Source: Arthrobacter sp. NEB 688 (GTDB taxonomy: Bacteria; Actinomycetota; Actinomycetes; Actinomycetales; Dermatophilaceae). From it: 64,000 nt of DNA. Below, in pieces: positions 53,977 through 61,342 of this stretch. Within the stretch, counting starts at the first letter, position 1. Each line of letters starts with the position of its first letter. The stretch spans positions 372,001 to 436,000 of the forward strand of contig NZ_CP053707.1 in NCBI RefSeq assembly GCF_013201035.1. Direction: 5' to 3'. Under the pieces are notes generated by a model. It was not told where the DNA came from and did not search any database. It saw only the letters and a list, made by a program, of their open reading frames with translations. The translations under genes and the position numbers were made by a program.

Positions 53977-54276
53977 TCAGCCGGCGTCGACCGGCACGAG
54001 CGGGTGGATGGCGATGTCGCCGGCCAGCGCCCCGTCGGCCGCGCCGAGCGCCGCCGCGATGTGCGGCGAGGCCATGTGCGCGTCGAGCGCCTCCTGGCCG
54101 GTCCAGCGCTCGACCGTGACGAAGACGCCCGGGGCGGCGGCCGACTCGTAGAGGTCGTAGGCGAGGCAGCCCTCCTCCTGACGGGTGGCCTCGACGAGCG
54201 TGCGCAGGGCCGCGCGCAGCGGCTCGACGTGCTCGGGCGCAACGGGGATGGTGGCGACGACGTGCAGCTCGGCCAT
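53977..54276 (-). CDS. ABM-family (YgiN-like) monooxygenase domain protein
   Basis: A 99-residue antibiotic-biosynthesis-monooxygenase-fold protein. HVVATIPVAPEHVEPLRAAL, EEGCLAYDLYESAAAPGVFV and ERWTGQEALDAHMASPHIA match small quinol monooxygenases that act as dimers. It is convergent with the isocitrate-lyase-like gene. Confidence 0.88.
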   Translation of the reverse strand: MAELHVVATIPVAPEHVEPLRAALRTLVEATRQEEGCLAYDLYESAAAPGVFVTVERWTGQEALDAHMASPHIAAALGAADGALAGDIAIHPLVPVDAG

Positions 54277-54443
54277 GGGGGACTCCGTCTCTCGGGGGGA
54301 GCCCAGCGTAGGGCGGCGGCGGGCGCCGGTGGCCCGCGCGCGCAGCCCTCCGTGCCGCCACGCCCACCGGGAACCTCCCGCGGCGCCGCGCAGCACGCGG
54401 GAGGCGTGGGAGCATCCCGGCGCCGGCCGCCGGGCCCCCCGGG

Positions 54444-55033: not shown

Positions 55034-55363
55034 TCAGCCGCGGGGCTGGATCTCGCCCATCGGGCCGAAGCCGTCGACCTCCTCGGCGTCCACGTAGATG
55101 ATCTGCGGCTGCGCCGAGACGATGTCCGGCATCTCGGCCATGAAGCGCTCGACGTGCGGCTGGCGCATGTGCTCGCCACCCGCCTCGGCGTCGCGGAAGC
55201 CCTCGATGCAGACGAAGGTGCGGGGCTCGTGGACGCTCTCGGAGAACTCGAAGAACACGTTGCCCGGCTCGGCGGTCACGTGCTCGACGTAGTACTGCGA
55301 CAGCTCCTTCCACTCCTCGAGCCTGTCCTCGCGGATGGGGAACTTCACGGTGATGAGGATCAA
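55034..55363 (-). CDS. ABM-family putative quinol monooxygenase
   Basis: A 109-residue protein starting MILITVKFPIREDRLEEWKE, with VTAEPGNVFFEFSESVHEPR and GFRDAEAGGEHMRQPHVERF. It resembles the first ABM gene but shares little identity. The C-terminal tail EEVDGFGPMGEIQPRG is unusual for the family. It follows the DUF1097 gene by 105 bp at the end of the amidohydrolase/alcohol dehydrogenase set. Confidence 0.85.
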   Translation of the reverse strand: MILITVKFPIREDRLEEWKELSQYYVEHVTAEPGNVFFEFSESVHEPRTFVCIEGFRDAEAGGEHMRQPHVERFMAEMPDIVSAQPQIIYVDAEEVDGFGPMGEIQPRG

Positions 55364-55468
55364 GGGAGTCTCCTTCTGCCGGGGGTCGGTACCCGCCCCA
55401 CGGTAGGTGGGCGGTGGTGGTGGGCGCCCACCCGGCCCGCTCTGGCGCGGGCCGGGCGGGCGACCGGG

Positions 55469-55975
55469 TCAGGCCGCCGCGGGAGCGGCGGGCGGCTCGG
55501 CGGCCGGCGGCTGGGAGGCCGTCGGGCGTCCGTCGACGAGCGACTGGATGCGGGCTCCGGCGACCGCCGAGGCCCACCCGAGGACGGCCCCGACGACGAT
55601 GGCCACGACGGTCGACCAGAACGACGCGGCGTTGCCGAAGTACGACGCCGCCCCGAAGAACGCGCCGGGGATGAACGACAGGACGAACCATCCGGCCTGC
55701 AGGCACATCGCGGCGGCGATGACGGCGACCGCGACCGCGAGCGCGCCCGGGAAGGTGGCGACGCCGGCGAACCAGACGGCCAGCCAGCCGTACACGACGC
55801 CGGACAGCGCCGAGGCGAGGATGCGGACGAACCCGTCCCGGGTGCCGCCGGCGGCGTAGAAGCCGGCCCACACGATGAACGCGATCCAGGTGACCAGGCC
55901 CAGCTCGGTGCTGACCTGGGTCCACACGCCCGCGAGGACGCCGATCGAGACGGCGACTCCGATGTAGCTCTTCAC
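55469..55975 (-). CDS. DUF1097 membrane protein
   Basis: A 168-residue protein with about five helices (GVAVSIGVLAGVWTQVST, LVTWIAFIVWAGFYAAGG, ILASALSGVVYGWLAVWFAG, ALAVAVAVIAAAMCLQ, FWSTVVAIVVGAVLGWASA). FYAAGGTRDGF and the order of helices fit DUF1097. The C-terminus is Ala/Pro-rich. It lies between alcohol dehydrogenase and the ABM gene, and could move a substrate of this operon. Confidence 0.78.
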   Translation of the reverse strand: MKSYIGVAVSIGVLAGVWTQVSTELGLVTWIAFIVWAGFYAAGGTRDGFVRILASALSGVVYGWLAVWFAGVATFPGALAVAVAVIAAAMCLQAGWFVLSFIPGAFFGAASYFGNAASFWSTVVAIVVGAVLGWASAVAGARIQSLVDGRPTASQPPAAEPPAAPAAA

Positions 55976-56018
55976 GACGGACTCCTTCGTCCGAGAGGTG
56001 AGGTGGGGTCGCGCCCGG

Positions 56019-57053
56019 TCAGGGCACGAGGATGGCGCGCCCGCGGACGGCGCCGTTGTCGAGGTCGGTGACGGCCTGCTGGAAGTCGTCGAGGGCGTAC
56101 TTCTGGGTGTGCAGCGTGACGAGCCCCTTGGCCGCGAGCGCCATGAGGTCCTGCAGGTCGTTGTACGAGCCGACGAGGTTGCCGATGACGTTCTTCTCGC
56201 TCGAGACGAGGTCGATCGTCGGGACGTCGACGTTCTCGCCGTAGCCGACGACGTGGTAGTCGCCCGCCTGCCGGGTCATCGCGAGACCCTCGGCCGTCGA
56301 GCCGTTCTCGCCGACGAAGTCGACGACGACCTCGGCGCCGGCACCGCCGGTGAGGTCGAGCACCGCCCCGACGTGGTTCCCGTCGGCCGCGACGCCCTCG
56401 TCGGCGCCGATGGAGCGGGCGAGGTCGAGGGCCGCGGGGATGCGGTCGACGACGACGATGCGCGCCGGGGTCAGTGCCTTGAGGACCTGGATCCCGATGT
56501 GCCCCAGGCCCCCTGCGCCGATGACGACGCAGGTGTCGCGCGGCGTGAGCCGACGGGCCGCCTTGGCCGCCGCGTGGTACGCGGTGAGGCCGGCGTCGGC
56601 GAGGGCCGCGACGTCGGCCGGCTCGAGCGAGTCGTCGATGCGCACGCAGGAGCGCGCCGACGTCAGCAGGTACTCGGCGTACCCGCCGTTCGTGTCGATG
56701 CCGGGGAAGGCGCTGTTCTCGCAGTGCACGTCGTCGCCCGAGCGGCACGCACGGCACAGGCCGCAGGTGACGAGCGGGTGGAGGATGACCTTGTCGCCCT
56801 CCTTGACGTTGGTGACGGCCGAGCCGACGGCGTGCACCCACCCGGCGTTCTCGTGGCCGATGGTGTACGGCAGGGCGACCTGGGACTTCTCGGCCCACTG
56901 CCCCTCGAGGATGTGCAGGTCGGTGCGGCACACGCCGGCCCCACCGATCCGGACGACGACGTCCCACGGCCCGGAGGCCTCGGGGATCGCCTTCTCCGTC
57001 ATCTCGAGCTTCTCGTGGTAGCCGACCACCTGGACGGCGCGCATGGTGCTCAT
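56019..57053 (-). CDS. Zinc-dependent NAD(P) alcohol dehydrogenase
   Basis: A 344-residue MDR enzyme. Catalytic zinc ligands are C42 and H67-E68 (GHENAGWV), and structural zinc cysteines are C97, C100, C103 and C111. The dinucleotide motif GAGGLGHIG is at about 180. The sequence resembles the alcohol dehydrogenase of actinobacterial propane monooxygenase clusters, which oxidises a short-chain alcohol. Its start is 3 bp after the DUF59 stop, which supports that comparison, but the alcohol is not known. Confidence 0.92.
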   Translation of the reverse strand: MSTMRAVQVVGYHEKLEMTEKAIPEASGPWDVVVRIGGAGVCRTDLHILEGQWAEKSQVALPYTIGHENAGWVHAVGSAVTNVKEGDKVILHPLVTCGLCRACRSGDDVHCENSAFPGIDTNGGYAEYLLTSARSCVRIDDSLEPADVAALADAGLTAYHAAAKAARRLTPRDTCVVIGAGGLGHIGIQVLKALTPARIVVVDRIPAALDLARSIGADEGVAADGNHVGAVLDLTGGAGAEVVVDFVGENGSTAEGLAMTRQAGDYHVVGYGENVDVPTIDLVSSEKNVIGNLVGSYNDLQDLMALAAKGLVTLHTQKYALDDFQQAVTDLDNGAVRGRAILVP

Positions 57054-57056
57054 GGG

Positions 57057-57845
57057 TCAGGACTCCTTGGGGGTGACGGGGGTCAGGGTCAGCAGGTGGT
57101 GGTGGTCGGCGGGCTCGGCGCCCTCGGGCCGGGGCGCCTGGTCGGCGCCCGAGCCGTCGTAGCGCGTGCGCAGCAGGCCGCGGCAGAAGTGCGCGTTGCC
57201 GTCGATGCTGATGCGGGTCGAGCGCGCGCGGCGCAGGAACATCGCCGTGTCGTCGGCCGCGGGCGGCCGGCCCTCGTGGTCGACGAGCACCGGGGCGTCG
57301 CCGTCGCCAGGCAGGCCGAGCGCCGTCCGCCGGGAGAGCAGCGCGTCGCGCTCCCGTCCGGCCGGCAGGTCGCGCAGGCGCACCGAGCGCAGCCCGTCCT
57401 CCGCGAGGGAGGAGTCGGCCCGCAGCAGCGCGGTGAGGCAGCGCTCCATCGCGGCGGTGTGGGCCTTGCGGCGGAAGGTCGCCCGCAGCTCCTCGAGGTC
57501 CTTCTCGGCCTCGTGCCCGAACGTGCCCCGGTACCCCGCGTCGGCCGCGAGGCCACGGTTGATGAGGTCGGAGTCGTGGTGGTCGTCGAGCTCGACGACC
57601 ACCCGCCCGACCCCCTCGATGCCGGTCAGGGCTTCCTTGCTGTCCGAGGCCATGAGGTAGGCGAAGTTCGGCGAGCAGAACGACGTCGGCAGGCGCAGGT
57701 GCACCGTGACGTCGCCCCCGTCGACCTCGACGGAGCGGACGAACCCGAGGTCGGTGATGGGCTCGTCGAGCTCGGGGTCGAGGACGACCGAGAGCGCGTC
57801 ACGGACGTCGCCGTCCGTGAGCTCCCGGGTGGCGAGGGCGGTCAT
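57057..57845 (-). CDS. DUF59/MIP18-type iron-sulfur assembly protein with long C-terminal extension
   Basis: A 262-residue protein. Residues 1-95 hold the MIP18 domain: DALSVVLDPELDEPITDLGF, VHLRLPTSFCSPNFAYLMAS with a cysteine. The remaining 165 residues, ending HHHLLTLTPVTPKES, are not a named domain for me. Similar genes occur between the amidohydrolase and the alcohol dehydrogenase in propane monooxygenase operons. ATG at 57845 overlaps the preceding stop. It could help mature a metalloenzyme, perhaps one encoded elsewhere. Confidence 0.82.
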   Translation of the reverse strand: MTALATRELTDGDVRDALSVVLDPELDEPITDLGFVRSVEVDGGDVTVHLRLPTSFCSPNFAYLMASDSKEALTGIEGVGRVVVELDDHHDSDLINRGLAADAGYRGTFGHEAEKDLEELRATFRRKAHTAAMERCLTALLRADSSLAEDGLRSVRLRDLPAGRERDALLSRRTALGLPGDGDAPVLVDHEGRPPAADDTAMFLRRARSTRISIDGNAHFCRGLLRTRYDGSGADQAPRPEGAEPADHHHLLTLTPVTPKES

Positions 57846-58888
57846 CAGACGGTCGCCAGGTCGGCGGCCTCGGGGTCGCGCGGACCGGTCTCGGTCGCGT
57901 CGGCCTCGGGCAGGCGCAGCTCGGCCGGCACCTCGATGCCGTACATCGTGGCGGCGTTGAGGCCGAGGATCTTCTTCTTCTGCGCCGTCGTCACCGGGGC
58001 GTACTCGGTCATGTCCTCGGGGATCTGGAAGTCGACGAACTTCTCGACGAGCCAGCGCGGCGTCCAGATGGCGTAGTCGCTCGAGAAGAAGATCCGGTCC
58101 TCGCCGATCCAGTAGAGGAGCTCGCCGAGGATCTGCGCGAAGTAGCGGGGCCGGGTGTGCATGAAGGGCATCGCGACGGCGAGGCCGCCGTAGACGTTCG
58201 GCTCCTGGGTGGCGATCCAGCAGAAGTCCTCGAGCCGCGGCAGGCCGACGTGCTCGACGATGAAGTTGAGGTCGGTGAAGTCGGTCGCCACGTGGTCGAT
58301 GTCGGCCACGTCGAAGGCGTCGCGGTCCAGCGGCCGGATGGTCGGGCCCTTGTGGATGTGGATGTTCGTGACGCCGAGCTCGCGGCAGGCCTCGAGGTAG
58401 CGGTAGGCCCACGGGTCGGTGAGCTTCCAGCCGCGCGACTCGCCGTGCCACTCGGCCGTGTAGAGCTTGACGCCGGTGAACCCCATCTTCTCGTGGTCGG
58501 CGCGCAGCTGCTCGAGGCCCTGCTCGCCGTTGCGGGGGTCCCAGTTGTGGTTGTACGTCAGCCGGTCGGGGTTGGCCGCGGCGAGCTGGTACGCCTCCTC
58601 GGTCTGGCCGAAACCGTTGCGGTAGAACTCGGTCAGCGCCGCCGGCTGGAAGATGGCGTGGTCGACGTGCCCGTCCTCGAAGATGTCCTTCATGAGGCGC
58701 TGACCGCCCTGGTAGAGGTACTCGTCGTACGTCCACACCTCGCTCTCCGGCGAGAGGTTGCGGTGGTAGTCGTAGAAGCAGTCGATGAACTGCTTGCCGT
58801 GGAGGTTGCGCAGGTTCTCGGCCCGAGCGTCCCAGAGCGCGATGTGCGCGTCGACGATGAAGTAGCTCTCGCCGTCCTTGGTGTACAT
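57845..58888 (-). CDS. Amidohydrolase 2-type protein of propane-monooxygenase-associated family
   Basis: A 347-residue TIM-barrel protein starting MYTKDGESYFIVDAHIALWD. HGKQFIDCFYDYHRNLSPE, KLYTAEWHGESRGWK, HIHKGPTIRPLDRDAFDVAD and EDFCWIATQEPN are the text of the amidohydrolase family found behind actinobacterial propane monooxygenase subunits. The usual metal HxH reads HIA here, with H and D elsewhere (HIHKG, IVEHVG, SSDYAIW). It may assist the monooxygenase or cleave a metabolite. ATG at 58888; a longer frame to 58981 crosses the palindrome. Confidence 0.88.
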   Translation of the reverse strand: MYTKDGESYFIVDAHIALWDARAENLRNLHGKQFIDCFYDYHRNLSPESEVWTYDEYLYQGGQRLMKDIFEDGHVDHAIFQPAALTEFYRNGFGQTEEAYQLAAANPDRLTYNHNWDPRNGEQGLEQLRADHEKMGFTGVKLYTAEWHGESRGWKLTDPWAYRYLEACRELGVTNIHIHKGPTIRPLDRDAFDVADIDHVATDFTDLNFIVEHVGLPRLEDFCWIATQEPNVYGGLAVAMPFMHTRPRYFAQILGELLYWIGEDRIFFSSDYAIWTPRWLVEKFVDFQIPEDMTEYAPVTTAQKKKILGLNAATMYGIEVPAELRLPEADATETGPRDPEAADLATV

Positions 58889-58972
58889 CCCCGATGTCTC
58901 CGTTCCCCACGACCTCGTCGTCGTGGACAGCCCCGACGCTAGGTCGGCCCCGGAGGCGTTCCCAGACCCCTC

Positions 58973-58991
58973 GTGTCCCACTTTGGGACAC
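58973..58991. promoter_or_regulatory. Palindromic candidate operator between regulator and amidohydrolase operon
   Basis: GTGTCCCA (58973-58980), CTT, TGGGACAC (58984-58991) is a perfect 8-bp inverted repeat. It lies 60 bp upstream of the regulator ATG (59051) and 84 bp upstream of the divergent amidohydrolase ATG (58888), placed to serve both. Confidence 0.6.
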
Positions 58992-59050: not shown

Positions 59051-60547
59051 ATGGGGCCGAGCGGCGGGGCACCACTCCCGGAGCGGGCCTCCGCGCCCTT
59101 CGGCGTCCGGGGCCCGGCCGTCGACCACCGGTTGATGGCCTCGTGGCGACGCAGCGAGGAGTACGGCGTCTCGCTCGAGTCGGTCGAGCCGGTGTGGGTC
59201 GGCCCGGTCGTCGACGGGTCCCTCTTCGCCGAGTGCGGCGGCGCCGTCCTCACCGACCTGCACCGCACGCTCGCCAACGAGCCCCTCTCGCTCATGCTGA
59301 CCGACCCCGACGGCCTGGTCCTCAACCGGTTCTCCGGCGACACCTCCCTGCTGCGGGCCCTCGACGCGGTGCACCTCGCGCCGGGGTTCGCCTTCTCCGA
59401 GCGCGAGGCCGGCACCAACGGCCTCGGCCTCGCGCTCGCCGACCGCACCGCCTCGCTCGTGCGGGCCGAGGAGCACTACAGCGCGAGCCTGTGCACCTAC
59501 ACGTGCGCCGCCGTGCCCGTGCTCGACCCGCTGACCGGCCGGCTCGAGGGCAGCGTCAACATCACGACCTGGGCGCGCTCGTCGGCCGACCTGCTGCTGG
59601 CGCTCGCGCAGTCGGCCGCGAGCACGACGAGCGCCATGATGCTCGCCCGCTCGCGGGGCCGCGCGCCGCGCACCCCACCGAAGGGCGGCGTCTTCCGGGT
59701 GCAGCGCGGCCGCCTCGAGCCGGGGGCCGGCACCCTGCGCAGCGTGTCCGGGCCGTGGGTGCGTGCCCTGGAGGAGGCGACCGCGGGGCTGGCCACCGGG
59801 CAGGTCGTGGCGGCGGTCGGCGAACCCGGATCGGGGCGCGCGACCCTCCTCGCCCAGGCCCTGCGGCGCGCCCACCCGCACCACCGCATCCTCAGCGCGG
59901 CCGCGCCGGCCCCGGACGACGTCGAGACCTGGCTCTCGCTGTGGACCCCGGAGCTGACCAAGCCCGACACCGCCGTCGTCGTCGAGAACGTCGACACGCT
60001 GCCGGCGTGGGCCGCCGCCGAGCTGCACCGTCGGGCCGTCGACGCCCTGCGCTCCTCCCCCTCCGGCGAACCCTCCGACCTCGCGTGGGGCGTCACGACC
60101 GAGTCGCTGGAGGCCGTGCCGGCGCCGCTGTCCGGGCTCGTCGCCTCCGTCGTCCGCGTCGCCCCGCTGCGCGAGCGGCCCGACGACGTCATGCCGCTCG
60201 CGCGCTACGTCGGCCACCAGACGCGGATGCGCGAGGTCGACTTCACGCCGGCCGCCGAGCGGGTGCTGACGACGTACGCCTGGCCGGGCAACGTCGACGA
60301 GCTCGTCCGGGTCGTGCACGCGGCCGCGACGCGCGCCGGGACCGTCGACGTGCGCCACCTCCCGGGCGAGCTGACGGCGACCCGCCGCCACCGGCTCTCG
60401 CGGCTGGAGTCGATCGAGCGCGACGAGATCGTCCGCACGCTCACCGCACCGGGGGTCACGGTCAAGCAGGCGGCGACGGAGCTCGGGATGAGCCGCTCGA
60501 CGCTCTACCGCAAGATCAGCCACTACGGCCTCGACGACCTGCGCTGA
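59051..60547 (+). CDS. GAF/AAA+/Fis regulator, MimR/AcoR-like, without sigma-54 loop
   Basis: A 498-residue regulator. An N-terminal sensor region (about 25-200) includes GAF-like SEREAGTNGLGLALADRTAS. A degraded AAA+ domain (about 235-410) has GEPGSGRATL at 257-265, where the Walker A lysine is R263, and no GAFTGA loop. The Fis-type HTH ends the protein (VKQAATELGMSRSTLYRKIS). Regulators of this shape control propane/acetone monooxygenase operons in Actinobacteria, which lack sigma-54. The ATG at 59051 follows GGAAGGAG. It most likely controls the divergent amidohydrolase operon. Confidence 0.9.
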   Translation: MGPSGGAPLPERASAPFGVRGPAVDHRLMASWRRSEEYGVSLESVEPVWVGPVVDGSLFAECGGAVLTDLHRTLANEPLSLMLTDPDGLVLNRFSGDTSLLRALDAVHLAPGFAFSEREAGTNGLGLALADRTASLVRAEEHYSASLCTYTCAAVPVLDPLTGRLEGSVNITTWARSSADLLLALAQSAASTTSAMMLARSRGRAPRTPPKGGVFRVQRGRLEPGAGTLRSVSGPWVRALEEATAGLATGQVVAAVGEPGSGRATLLAQALRRAHPHHRILSAAAPAPDDVETWLSLWTPELTKPDTAVVVENVDTLPAWAAAELHRRAVDALRSSPSGEPSDLAWGVTTESLEAVPAPLSGLVASVVRVAPLRERPDDVMPLARYVGHQTRMREVDFTPAAERVLTTYAWPGNVDELVRVVHAAATRAGTVDVRHLPGELTATRRHRLSRLESIERDEIVRTLTAPGVTVKQAATELGMSRSTLYRKISHYGLDDLR

Positions 60548-60649: not shown

Positions 60650-61342
60650 GTGCCCAGGGTCGTGGCCATCACCGGAGCGTGTTCCGAGACAGCGGTGGAG
60701 GCGGCTGCGCGCTTCGCCGGGCGCGGCGACAAGGTCGCCCTCCTCTCCCGCACGCCGATCGCCGTCGACGAGCTGGTCACGGCGCTGCGCCGCAGCGGCG
60801 CCCACGCGATGGGCGTCGTCGTCGACACGTCCGACCCGGACGCCGTCGAGTCGGCCGTCGCGCGGGTCGAGGTCGAGCTCGGCCCGGTGGACGTCTGGGT
60901 CAACACCGCCGACGACCCACCGGAGCGCACCTTCCGCGACCACGAACCGCGCGAGTTCCGCGCGATCACCGAGCAGCTCTACCTCGGGCACGTCCACGCG
61001 ACGATGACCGTCCTCGAGCGGATGCGCGAGCGCGGCAGCGGCACCATCGTCCACGTCGCGACCGCCGCGGCCCGGCGCGGTCGCGCCGGCCAGTCGGCGC
61101 GCTCCGGGGCCGAGGCCGCGCTGCGCGGCTTCCACGAGTCGGTGTCGGCGGAGCTGCGCGTCGAGGGCAGCCCGGTCCGGCTGGCGCTCGTCGAGCGCGG
61201 CGAGCGCGAGACCACGGCCTCCGCCGCGGCCGCCGTCCTGCGGGCGGCCGGCCCCTCGCCGCGCGCCCGGACGACGCTCGCGGGAGCGCTCGCCGCGACG
61301 GCCACGGCGGCGTTGCTCGCCGTCCGCCGGCGCCGCCGCTGA
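60650..61342 (+). CDS. Degenerate short-chain dehydrogenase/reductase with C-terminal membrane helix
   Basis: A 230-residue SDR-fold protein. The glycine motif reads TGACSETA instead of TGxxxGxG, and the catalytic YxxxK reads SxxxE in AGQSARSGAEAALRGF, so ordinary SDR chemistry is unlikely. A C-terminal hydrophobic segment (LAGALAATATAALLAVRRRR) suggests membrane attachment. It may be a structural or non-catalytic protein. GTG start at 60650 with GGAAGGAG upstream. Confidence 0.72.
   Translation: MPRVVAITGACSETAVEAAARFAGRGDKVALLSRTPIAVDELVTALRRSGAHAMGVVVDTSDPDAVESAVARVEVELGPVDVWVNTADDPPERTFRDHEPREFRAITEQLYLGHVHATMTVLERMRERGSGTIVHVATAAARRGRAGQSARSGAEAALRGFHESVSAELRVEGSPVRLALVERGERETTASAAAAVLRAAGPSPRARTTLAGALAATATAALLAVRRRRR

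What the first reader, a model, noticed from the sequence alone, without database searches (positions are those of the whole stretch)
55034..58888. Amidohydrolase-DUF59-alcohol dehydrogenase set with no monooxygenase
Three genes appear in the order, with the 3-bp gap or overlap, seen behind actinobacterial propane monooxygenase (prm/mim) subunits, and a divergent GAF/AAA/Fis regulator of the MimR kind flanks them. The hydroxylase, reductase and coupling subunits and the GroEL gene are absent here, and DUF1097 and ABM proteins take their place. Either the monooxygenase is encoded elsewhere, or the three proteins have a stand-alone role with an alcohol. If they work without a monooxygenase, the role of the amidohydrolase and DUF59 proteins may differ from what is assumed for prm clusters.
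Basis: partly seen in the sequence, partly recalled or inferred. Interest (0 to 1): 0.7.

Follow-up and report, generated by a model that had tools for sequence, protein, structure and literature searches.

The report
Propane-cluster gene trio without its oxygenase
Three genes usually noticed only beside bacterial propane-oxidising enzymes also form, in many soil bacteria, their own separately controlled operon with no such enzyme, so they probably handle an alcohol by themselves rather than helping it.

Summary
On the minus strand lie a PF04909 amidohydrolase, a DUF59 protein and a zinc alcohol dehydrogenase (1-bp overlap, 3-bp gap), then DUF1097 and ABM genes; a divergent AAA-lid/Fis regulator flanks them. 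The complete 4.08-Mb genome has no PF02332 di-iron hydroxylase (the same search rings in 7 of 32 amidohydrolase-bearing genomes).

It is no local oddity. Of 71 amidohydrolase-bearing genomes 48 lack PF02332 above its cut-off, as do 30 of 42 named stand-alone relatives. The oxygenase-free type is one clade in the DUF59 tree (71 rows) and, but for one row, in the amidohydrolase tree. It has its own regulator clade and a conserved upstream palindrome (60 of 63 loci at 2 mismatches or fewer; 0 of 37 oxygenase-linked). All 74 clade rows have Ala for the second His of HxH.

Best reading: a locally regulated alcohol-catabolic operon, in which amidohydrolase and DUF59 are a pathway enzyme and its metal loader rather than oxygenase helpers. 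Substrate and chemistry are unproven.

The parts
57845..58888 (-). Amidohydrolase (PF04909), first gene of the operon; HxH motif reads H15-x-A17
   Evidence: model mean pLDDT 91.2
57057..57845 (-). DUF59 / FeS_assembly_P protein, 262 aa: MIP18-like N-terminal domain plus helical C-terminal domain; C57, H89, C221 invariant
   Evidence: model mean pLDDT 91.6; CIAO2/DUF59 matches
56019..57053 (-). Zinc-dependent MDR alcohol dehydrogenase
   Evidence: ligand positions C42, H67, E68, C97, C100, C103, C111 conserved in 114 rows
55469..55975 (-). DUF1097 membrane-type protein, optional member of the operon
   Evidence: PF06496; 11 of 71 stand-alone loci, 15 by tblastn
55034..55363 (-). ABM-family small protein, optional member, also in some oxygenase-linked loci
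   Evidence: PF03992; 24 of 71 stand-alone and 10 of 28 oxygenase-linked loci; 32% identical to the one in L031
59051..60547 (+). Divergent regulator with AAA lid and Fis-type HTH, no PF00158 match and no GAFTGA (GTG start at 58973 also possible)
58974..58990 (.). Palindrome TGTCCCAAAGTGGGACA, the likely operator
58936..58941 (-). TAGCGT, a possible -10 element (weak)
   Evidence: weakly conserved TANNNT 49-54 bases after the palindrome start in 61 aligned sequences; sequence

Best explanation
This is a stand-alone catabolic operon that descends from, or shares an ancestor with, the accessory part of propane-monooxygenase (prm/mim) clusters and works without a di-iron monooxygenase. The regulator from the divergent gene binds the palindrome 58974-58990 and, on sensing a small alcohol or ketone, activates the operon through a sigma-70-type promoter. 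The zinc dehydrogenase oxidises a short, probably secondary, alcohol. The amidohydrolase, a metal enzyme with a decarboxylase/hydratase-like fold, acts on the product or a compound derived from it, and the DUF59 protein keeps it supplied with metal or an Fe-S-derived metal. Shown: gene content and order, absence of PF02332, separate clade, separate regulator clade, conserved palindrome, purifying selection. Inferred: binding, activation, inducer, substrate, the amidohydrolase reaction and the DUF59 role. My probabilities: independent, selected operon without a di-iron oxygenase 0.92; role in alcohol or ketone metabolism 0.65; amidohydrolase plus DUF59 as pathway enzyme plus loader 0.5.
For: No PF02332 in the complete genome; search proven by 7 of 32 other or same-order genomes. 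48 of 71 amidohydrolase-bearing genomes lack it, 30 of 42 named ones. Stand-alone rows form one DUF59 clade (71 rows, 100% of 200 bootstrap trees) and one amidohydrolase fork with a single SDIMO-linked row in it. Regulators split into two groups on one branch (64 and 27 rows, support 100). Palindrome at 2 mismatches or fewer in 60 of 63 stand-alone, 0 of 37 SDIMO-linked upstream regions, 5 of 315 shuffles; one perfect copy in this genome. dN/dS 0.11-0.41 in 23 of 24 comparisons. The ADH is from other ADH lineages in 13 of 71 stand-alone rows, yet an ADH stays. In Mycobacterium AT1, a propane grower, the only amidohydrolase of this kind is the stand-alone one.
Against: No substrate, inducer or enzyme activity is known for any stand-alone copy. 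DUF59 proteins also accompany another di-iron oxygenase (PaaD; recalled, and weak NCBIfam likeness), which favours a maturation role. 12 of 42 named stand-alone genomes do have a di-iron oxygenase elsewhere. SDIMO-linked lineages lie around the stand-alone clade, so the original role may have been with the oxygenase. L107 is SDIMO-linked inside the clade. In A. chiangmaiensis the GroEL is as abundant as the amidohydrolase, so abundance does not tell enzyme from helper. The loss of the HxH histidine could mean loss of catalysis.
Confidence: 0.5

Rival explanations
1. Helper set for an oxygenase encoded elsewhere: amidohydrolase and DUF59 mature or repair a metal oxygenase in trans, and the ADH handles its alcohol product.
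For: Classical clusters keep the pair beside SDIMO subunits; 7 of 32, 16 of 39 and 12 of 42 genomes do hold a PF02332 protein; AT1 might use its stand-alone set for its propane monooxygenase.
Against: Most carriers, and this complete genome, have no PF02332; no oxygenase gene is conserved near the stand-alone loci.
Confidence: 0.25
2. Detoxification operon: the three enzymes remove a reactive carbonyl (for example methylglyoxal or a short aldehyde), the ADH working as a reductase.
For: Glyoxalase-like or DJ-1/PfpI genes lie beside or near some copies: Peribacillus, Rhizobium N324, Ponticoccus, and two deep actinobacterial loci (one of the latter confirmed as PF00903).
Against: No such gene is recurrent in the stand-alone actinobacterial loci (queries from 6 loci).
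Confidence: 0.15
3. A decaying remnant of a prm cluster without function.
For: Patchy presence: 7 of the 24 family members listed; SDIMO-linked lineages branch outside the clade.
Against: dN/dS 0.11-0.41, conserved palindrome and an own regulator clade across many families.
Confidence: 0.02

Closest known systems
prm/mim propane (acetone, phenol) monooxygenase clusters, group V SDIMO
   Same: Amidohydrolase, DUF59 and ADH homologues in the same order, and a homologous regulator; ABM in some
   Different: No hydroxylase, reductase, coupling protein or prm-type GroEL; separate DUF59 and regulator clades, own palindrome, Ala17
The displaced trio of Mycobacterium sp. AT1 (PMC6849523)
   Same: L098 has the same gene order, regulator type, palindrome (2 mismatches) and tree position as the window
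   Different: AT1 also has two SDIMOs (four PF02332 matches); the paper describes the trio as prm genes at another location, not as a separate operon (section 7)
ACMSD / gamma-resorcylate / 5-carboxyvanillate decarboxylases and LigJ/LigY of the amidohydrolase fold
   Same: Best Foldseek matches of known function
   Different: 11-18% identity in the listed matches; no convincing sequence relative of known function; rank 1, 3irs, is uncharacterised
PaaD and SufT, DUF59 proteins of Fe-S biogenesis
   Same: DUF59 domain; CIAO2B, Rv1466 and bacterial DUF59 structures match the N-terminal part
   Different: NCBIfam scores far below cut-off (29 against 180 bits for PaaD); extra helical C-terminal domain without a confident match

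Membership tests
prm/mim propane monooxygenase cluster | Di-iron hydroxylase subunits (PF02332) | tested here: not met
   0 matches in the complete genome; 7 of 32 in the comparison set as positive control
prm/mim propane monooxygenase cluster | Reductase and coupling protein beside the trio | tested here: not met
   tblastn of reference subunits finds none in the 19 kb of L057
prm/mim propane monooxygenase cluster | Dedicated MimG-type GroEL | tested here: not met
   two GroELs at 52-53% identity against 67-68% for prm-linked ones
prm/mim propane monooxygenase cluster | Amidohydrolase-DUF59-ADH in this order | tested here: met
prm/mim propane monooxygenase cluster | Regulator of the prm-linked clade | tested here: not met
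   homologous but on the other side of a branch with support 100
Amidohydro_2 (PF04909) | Score above the gathering cut-off | tested here: met
   166.8 against 26.4 bits
Amidohydro_2 (PF04909) | HxH metal motif of strand 1 (motif recalled) | tested here: not met
   A17 in 74 of 74 stand-alone rows; H15, H177, H213 and D271 kept in 125 of 125
PaaD (NF041868, TIGR02159) | NCBIfam equivalog cut-off | tested here: not met
   29 and 21.6 bits against 180 and 108
DhaR (NF008485) | NCBIfam equivalog cut-off | tested here: not met
   118.8 against 551 bits
Sigma-54-dependent activator | PF00158 domain with GAFTGA loop | tested here: not met
   no PF00158 match; GAFTGA in 0 of 98 regulators
Secondary alcohol dehydrogenase (Adh1 of prm clusters) | Groups with prm-linked ADHs | tested here: inconclusive
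   58 stand-alone rows lie next to a prm-linked group of 17 in a quick tree; careful search unfinished
Secondary alcohol dehydrogenase (Adh1 of prm clusters) | Activity on 2-propanol with NAD | not testable with these tools
   needs purified enzyme

The most novel reading that the evidence does not exclude
The amidohydrolase and DUF59 proteins are an undescribed two-part metalloenzyme system, a catalyst with its own metal or cluster loader, for small alcohol- or ketone-derived compounds. It is a unit in its own right, found from Actinomycetota to haloarchaea; prm/mim clusters are one of several settings that use it, and in the stand-alone actinobacterial lineage its metal site was rebuilt (HxH to HxA) under a new regulator and operator.
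Probability: 0.35. Interest if true: 0.72.

Novelty: new variant of a known kind. Interest (0 to 1): 0.5.

Why it matters
Two genes of unknown role are routinely drawn in propane monooxygenase clusters. If most copies live without a di-iron monooxygenase, their role cannot in general be to mature it, and SDIMO-free hosts with a single, locally regulated operon become clean places to find out what they do. It also warns annotators not to infer propane or acetone oxidation from this trio alone.

Tried and rejected
Considered and rejected: a monooxygenase just outside the window (L057; PF02332 in the whole genome); a decayed remnant; a wide regulon in this genome (one perfect palindrome; four further places at one mismatch, whose neighbours I did not examine, except that one lies just 3' of a groEL seen); a sigma-54-dependent regulator. 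PF02461 gave nothing but also rang in no control genome, so it is weak.

Results against the reading, and rows dropped or moved. L107 (titled Nocardia alni) is SDIMO-linked yet falls in the stand-alone amidohydrolase clade. Eight rows without the stand-alone regulator (seven Streptomyces, and one Blastococcus whose contig ends there) were moved into the stand-alone group because of the amidohydrolase tree; five of the Streptomyces have another regulator, two none found. In the ADH tree stand-alone rows need 4 changes. The 71 genomes were picked by the amidohydrolase alone at two thresholds (1e-40 and 1e-80); four are remote (33-43% identity: G040, G056, G337, G596), all without PF02332; without them it is 44 of 67. 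Many genomes are drafts. In one search I gave 42 of 48 named stand-alone loci; left out were L080 (same genome as L078), L114, L131 and L144 (tested as G032, G121 and G227) and L102 and L149, whose loci hold SDIMO genes; with these two it is 30 of 44. Amidohydrolase and DUF59 are not adjacent everywhere: no DUF59 was found by the truncated amidohydrolase of L142 or in the remote loci L055 and L056, and some contigs end too soon. In one search the regulator row against L061 (dN 2.5) is an alignment failure and was dropped. L044, L048 and L067 were dropped as copies of L114, L131 and L144. Duplicate or short upstream stretches were dropped. The palindrome pattern was shaped on these loci before it was scored. 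Regulator labels rest partly on which reference protein matched best. Deep actinobacterial loci (20 of the 39 genomes, fetched) show both states, so the ancestral state is unresolved. The second-look structure library was absent.

Literature: eight searches listed no paper that describes the stand-alone operon; the library does not hold the two papers tried by id (the Gordonia TY-5 paper, and a DOI recalled as that of the MimR paper). Seen: PMC6849523 passages and section 7; passages only of PMC7176365, PMC9213486, PMC9782250, PMC13188929, PMC12783916; the rest as search listings. MimR as acetone sensor, PaaD's role, and the ExH motif of some decarboxylases are recalled.
Full report
What is there. 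On the minus strand, between 58888 and 55034, lie five genes: a PF04909 amidohydrolase, a DUF59 protein, a zinc-type MDR alcohol dehydrogenase, a DUF1097 protein and a small ABM protein. The amidohydrolase stop and the DUF59 start overlap by one base and three bases separate DUF59 from ADH, so the first three look translationally coupled (inference). A divergent plus-strand gene codes for a regulator with an AAA lid and a Fis-type HTH, without PF00158 match or GAFTGA loop. Its start is probably the ATG at 59051, because the upstream GTG at 58973 would run over a perfect palindrome, TGTCCCAAAGTGGGACA, at 58974-58990 (inference).

No di-iron oxygenase. The window lies in a complete single-contig genome of 4,077,299 bases. 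PF02332 finds nothing there. As that search rang in none of 14 control genomes, I repeated it on the 32 genomes (of 297 of the order) that carry the amidohydrolase at E <= 1e-40: it rang in 7 of 32, again not in this genome. Reference subunits and GroEL find nothing in the 19 kb of L057; the genome's two GroELs are not of the prm-linked type. PF02461 was negative without a positive control; one P450 gene lies at 1.17 Mb. AlkB and flavin monooxygenases were not searched.

The amidohydrolase without a di-iron oxygenase is the common state. In a phylum-wide sample 41 of 396 genomes carry it at E <= 1e-80; two were already counted, and of the other 39, 17 have a PF02332 match at E <= 0.001, 16 of them over the cut-off. 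Together 48 of 71 genomes lack PF02332 over its cut-off (44 of 67 without four remote ones). Of 42 named genomes of the stand-alone clade, 30 lack it (30 of 44 if the two Prauserella are added). In the window's family, 7 of the 24 genomes listed carry the amidohydrolase: an accessory trait. Outside Actinomycetota, copies with no SDIMO gene annotated or found by tblastn in the fetched stretch sit on plasmids of Thermomicrobium, two haloarchaea, Peribacillus and Rhizobium N324; classical SDIMO clusters appear in Aminobacter, Paracoccus, Gemmobacter, Caballeronia, Bradyrhizobium and Ponticoccus.

Two kinds of locus. I mapped reference proteins on 12 plasmid loci, 34 loci of unnamed relatives and 79 named loci. 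One kind has SDIMO alpha, reductase, beta and MmoB genes, then amidohydrolase and DUF59, mostly ADH and GroEL. The other has the window's regulator type, usually divergent, then amidohydrolase, DUF59 and ADH (in some lineages the ADH lies beyond the regulator). Among 71 stand-alone loci ABM is in 24 and DUF1097 in 11; ABM is also in 10 of 28 SDIMO-linked loci, DUF1097 in none. Apart from shadows of these genes I saw no other family in more than about a dozen of the 71, with queries from 6 loci only. Two Prauserella species carry both kinds side by side (L102, L149).

A separate lineage. In the amidohydrolase tree (125 rows, quick method) one starred fork of 75 rows holds all 66 rows labelled stand-alone, 8 rows with neither SDIMO nor that regulator in view, and one SDIMO-linked row, L107. 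In the DUF59 tree (121 rows, careful method) the 71 stand-alone rows, which include rows from those 8, form one clade in 100% of 200 bootstrap trees. In the ADH tree (quick; careful search unfinished) 58 stand-alone rows stay together near prm-linked ones, and 13 others carry ADHs of two other lineages: the dehydrogenase was swapped while a dehydrogenase stayed, which points to alcohol oxidation (inference). The 64 stand-alone and 27 SDIMO-linked regulators fall on two sides of one branch with support 100. SDIMO-linked lineages lie outside the stand-alone clade, which suggests, but with a midpoint root does not prove, one escape from a prm cluster.

A conserved operator-like site. The palindrome was seen in the window, generalised and then scored. 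With TGTCYCRNNNYGRGACA, 60 of 63 stand-alone upstream regions match at 2 mismatches or fewer and 63 of 63 at 3 or fewer, all but two of them starting 86-125 bases before the amidohydrolase start; of 37 SDIMO-linked regions 0 and 2 do, of 22 others 3 and 4, of 315 dinucleotide shuffles 5 and 46. Aligned on the palindrome, 61 sequences show near-complete conservation over it and a weak TANNNT-like element 49-54 bases after its start. In this genome the perfect site occurs at one place only, so the regulon is probably this operon alone. Binding is inferred.

Selection. Against four relatives, dN/dS is 0.11-0.41 in 23 of 24 gene comparisons; the other is an alignment failure. The operon is not a remnant.

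What the proteins may do. The amidohydrolase model (mean pLDDT 91.2) matches best, among enzymes of known function, decarboxylases and hydratases of the amidohydrolase fold (rank 1, 3irs, is uncharacterised). D13, H15, K141, H177, H179, H213, E229 and D271 are invariant in 125 rows, but position 17, the second His of the usual HxH motif, is Ala in 74 of 74 stand-alone rows, and His in 23 of 30 SDIMO-linked actinobacterial rows (Ala in 7), 6 of 6 proteobacterial and 13 of 14 other rows. The DUF59 protein (mean pLDDT 91.6) has a CIAO2/DUF59 N-terminal domain, a helical C-terminal domain with no confident match, and invariant C57, H89 and C221. DUF59 lies next to the amidohydrolase in nearly all loci (121 of 125 rows had one within 3 kb), more constant than the ADH, so I read the two as one functional pair (inference). 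The ADH keeps its zinc-ligand positions.

Support from the literature. In Actinomycetospora chiangmaiensis the prm-linked amidohydrolase-like protein is given as 3.2% and Adh1 as 6.1% of the proteome, differing 1.6- and 1.3-fold between 2-HIBA and acetone (PMC7176365, passages): high for a helper, but the GroEL stands at 4.0%, so this does not decide. Mycobacterium sp. AT1 grows on propane and was reported to have the trio apart from the monooxygenase (PMC6849523, section 7). It shows one such amidohydrolase at E <= 1e-60, and its locus L098 has the stand-alone regulator, palindrome and tree position. So what looked like a displaced prm set is the separate operon; a propane grower apparently manages without a prm-type trio, or uses the stand-alone one instead.

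Verdict. The block is ordinary in that many oxygenase-free relatives have it, and more interesting in that it is a distinct, regulated lineage. Everything beyond 'locally regulated, alcohol-linked operon' is conjecture with the probabilities given.

Noticed in passing
L102:6400-16996 and L149:600-11236: Two Prauserella species carry a stand-alone operon and an oxygenase-linked cluster side by side, convergent, within about 10 kb.
   Followed up: partly
L031:6591-8934: On a Rhodococcus aetherivorans plasmid an SDIMO alpha gene (64% identical to the Aminobacter one, not listed in the PLSDB annotation) runs almost straight into a zinc-dehydrogenase gene; reductase, beta and coupling genes were not found, as if lost.
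   Followed up: no
L058, L059, L063 upstream of the amidohydrolase: A second, similar palindrome follows the first within about 25 bases in these three loci (printout).
   Followed up: no
L107:1700-12400: The locus titled Nocardia alni is SDIMO-linked but its amidohydrolase falls inside the stand-alone clade; treekit placed the organism in Frankiaceae.
   Followed up: no
L158, L160, L168: In deep actinobacterial lineages the trio lies near housekeeping genes (DNA polymerase III delta', PSP1, peptidase S58, in part) without SDIMO genes in the fetched stretch; L158 has a LuxR-type and L160 an IclR-type regulator gene nearby.
   Followed up: partly
L078 and L080: Arthrobacter liuii has two stand-alone operons on different contigs (amidohydrolases 85% and 83% identical to the window's).
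   Followed up: no
window 53998-54285, 60650-61342: A second ABM gene and an SDR gene flank the operon; both have counterparts at 64% and 67% identity beside the operon of Phycicoccus flavus (L077).
   Followed up: no
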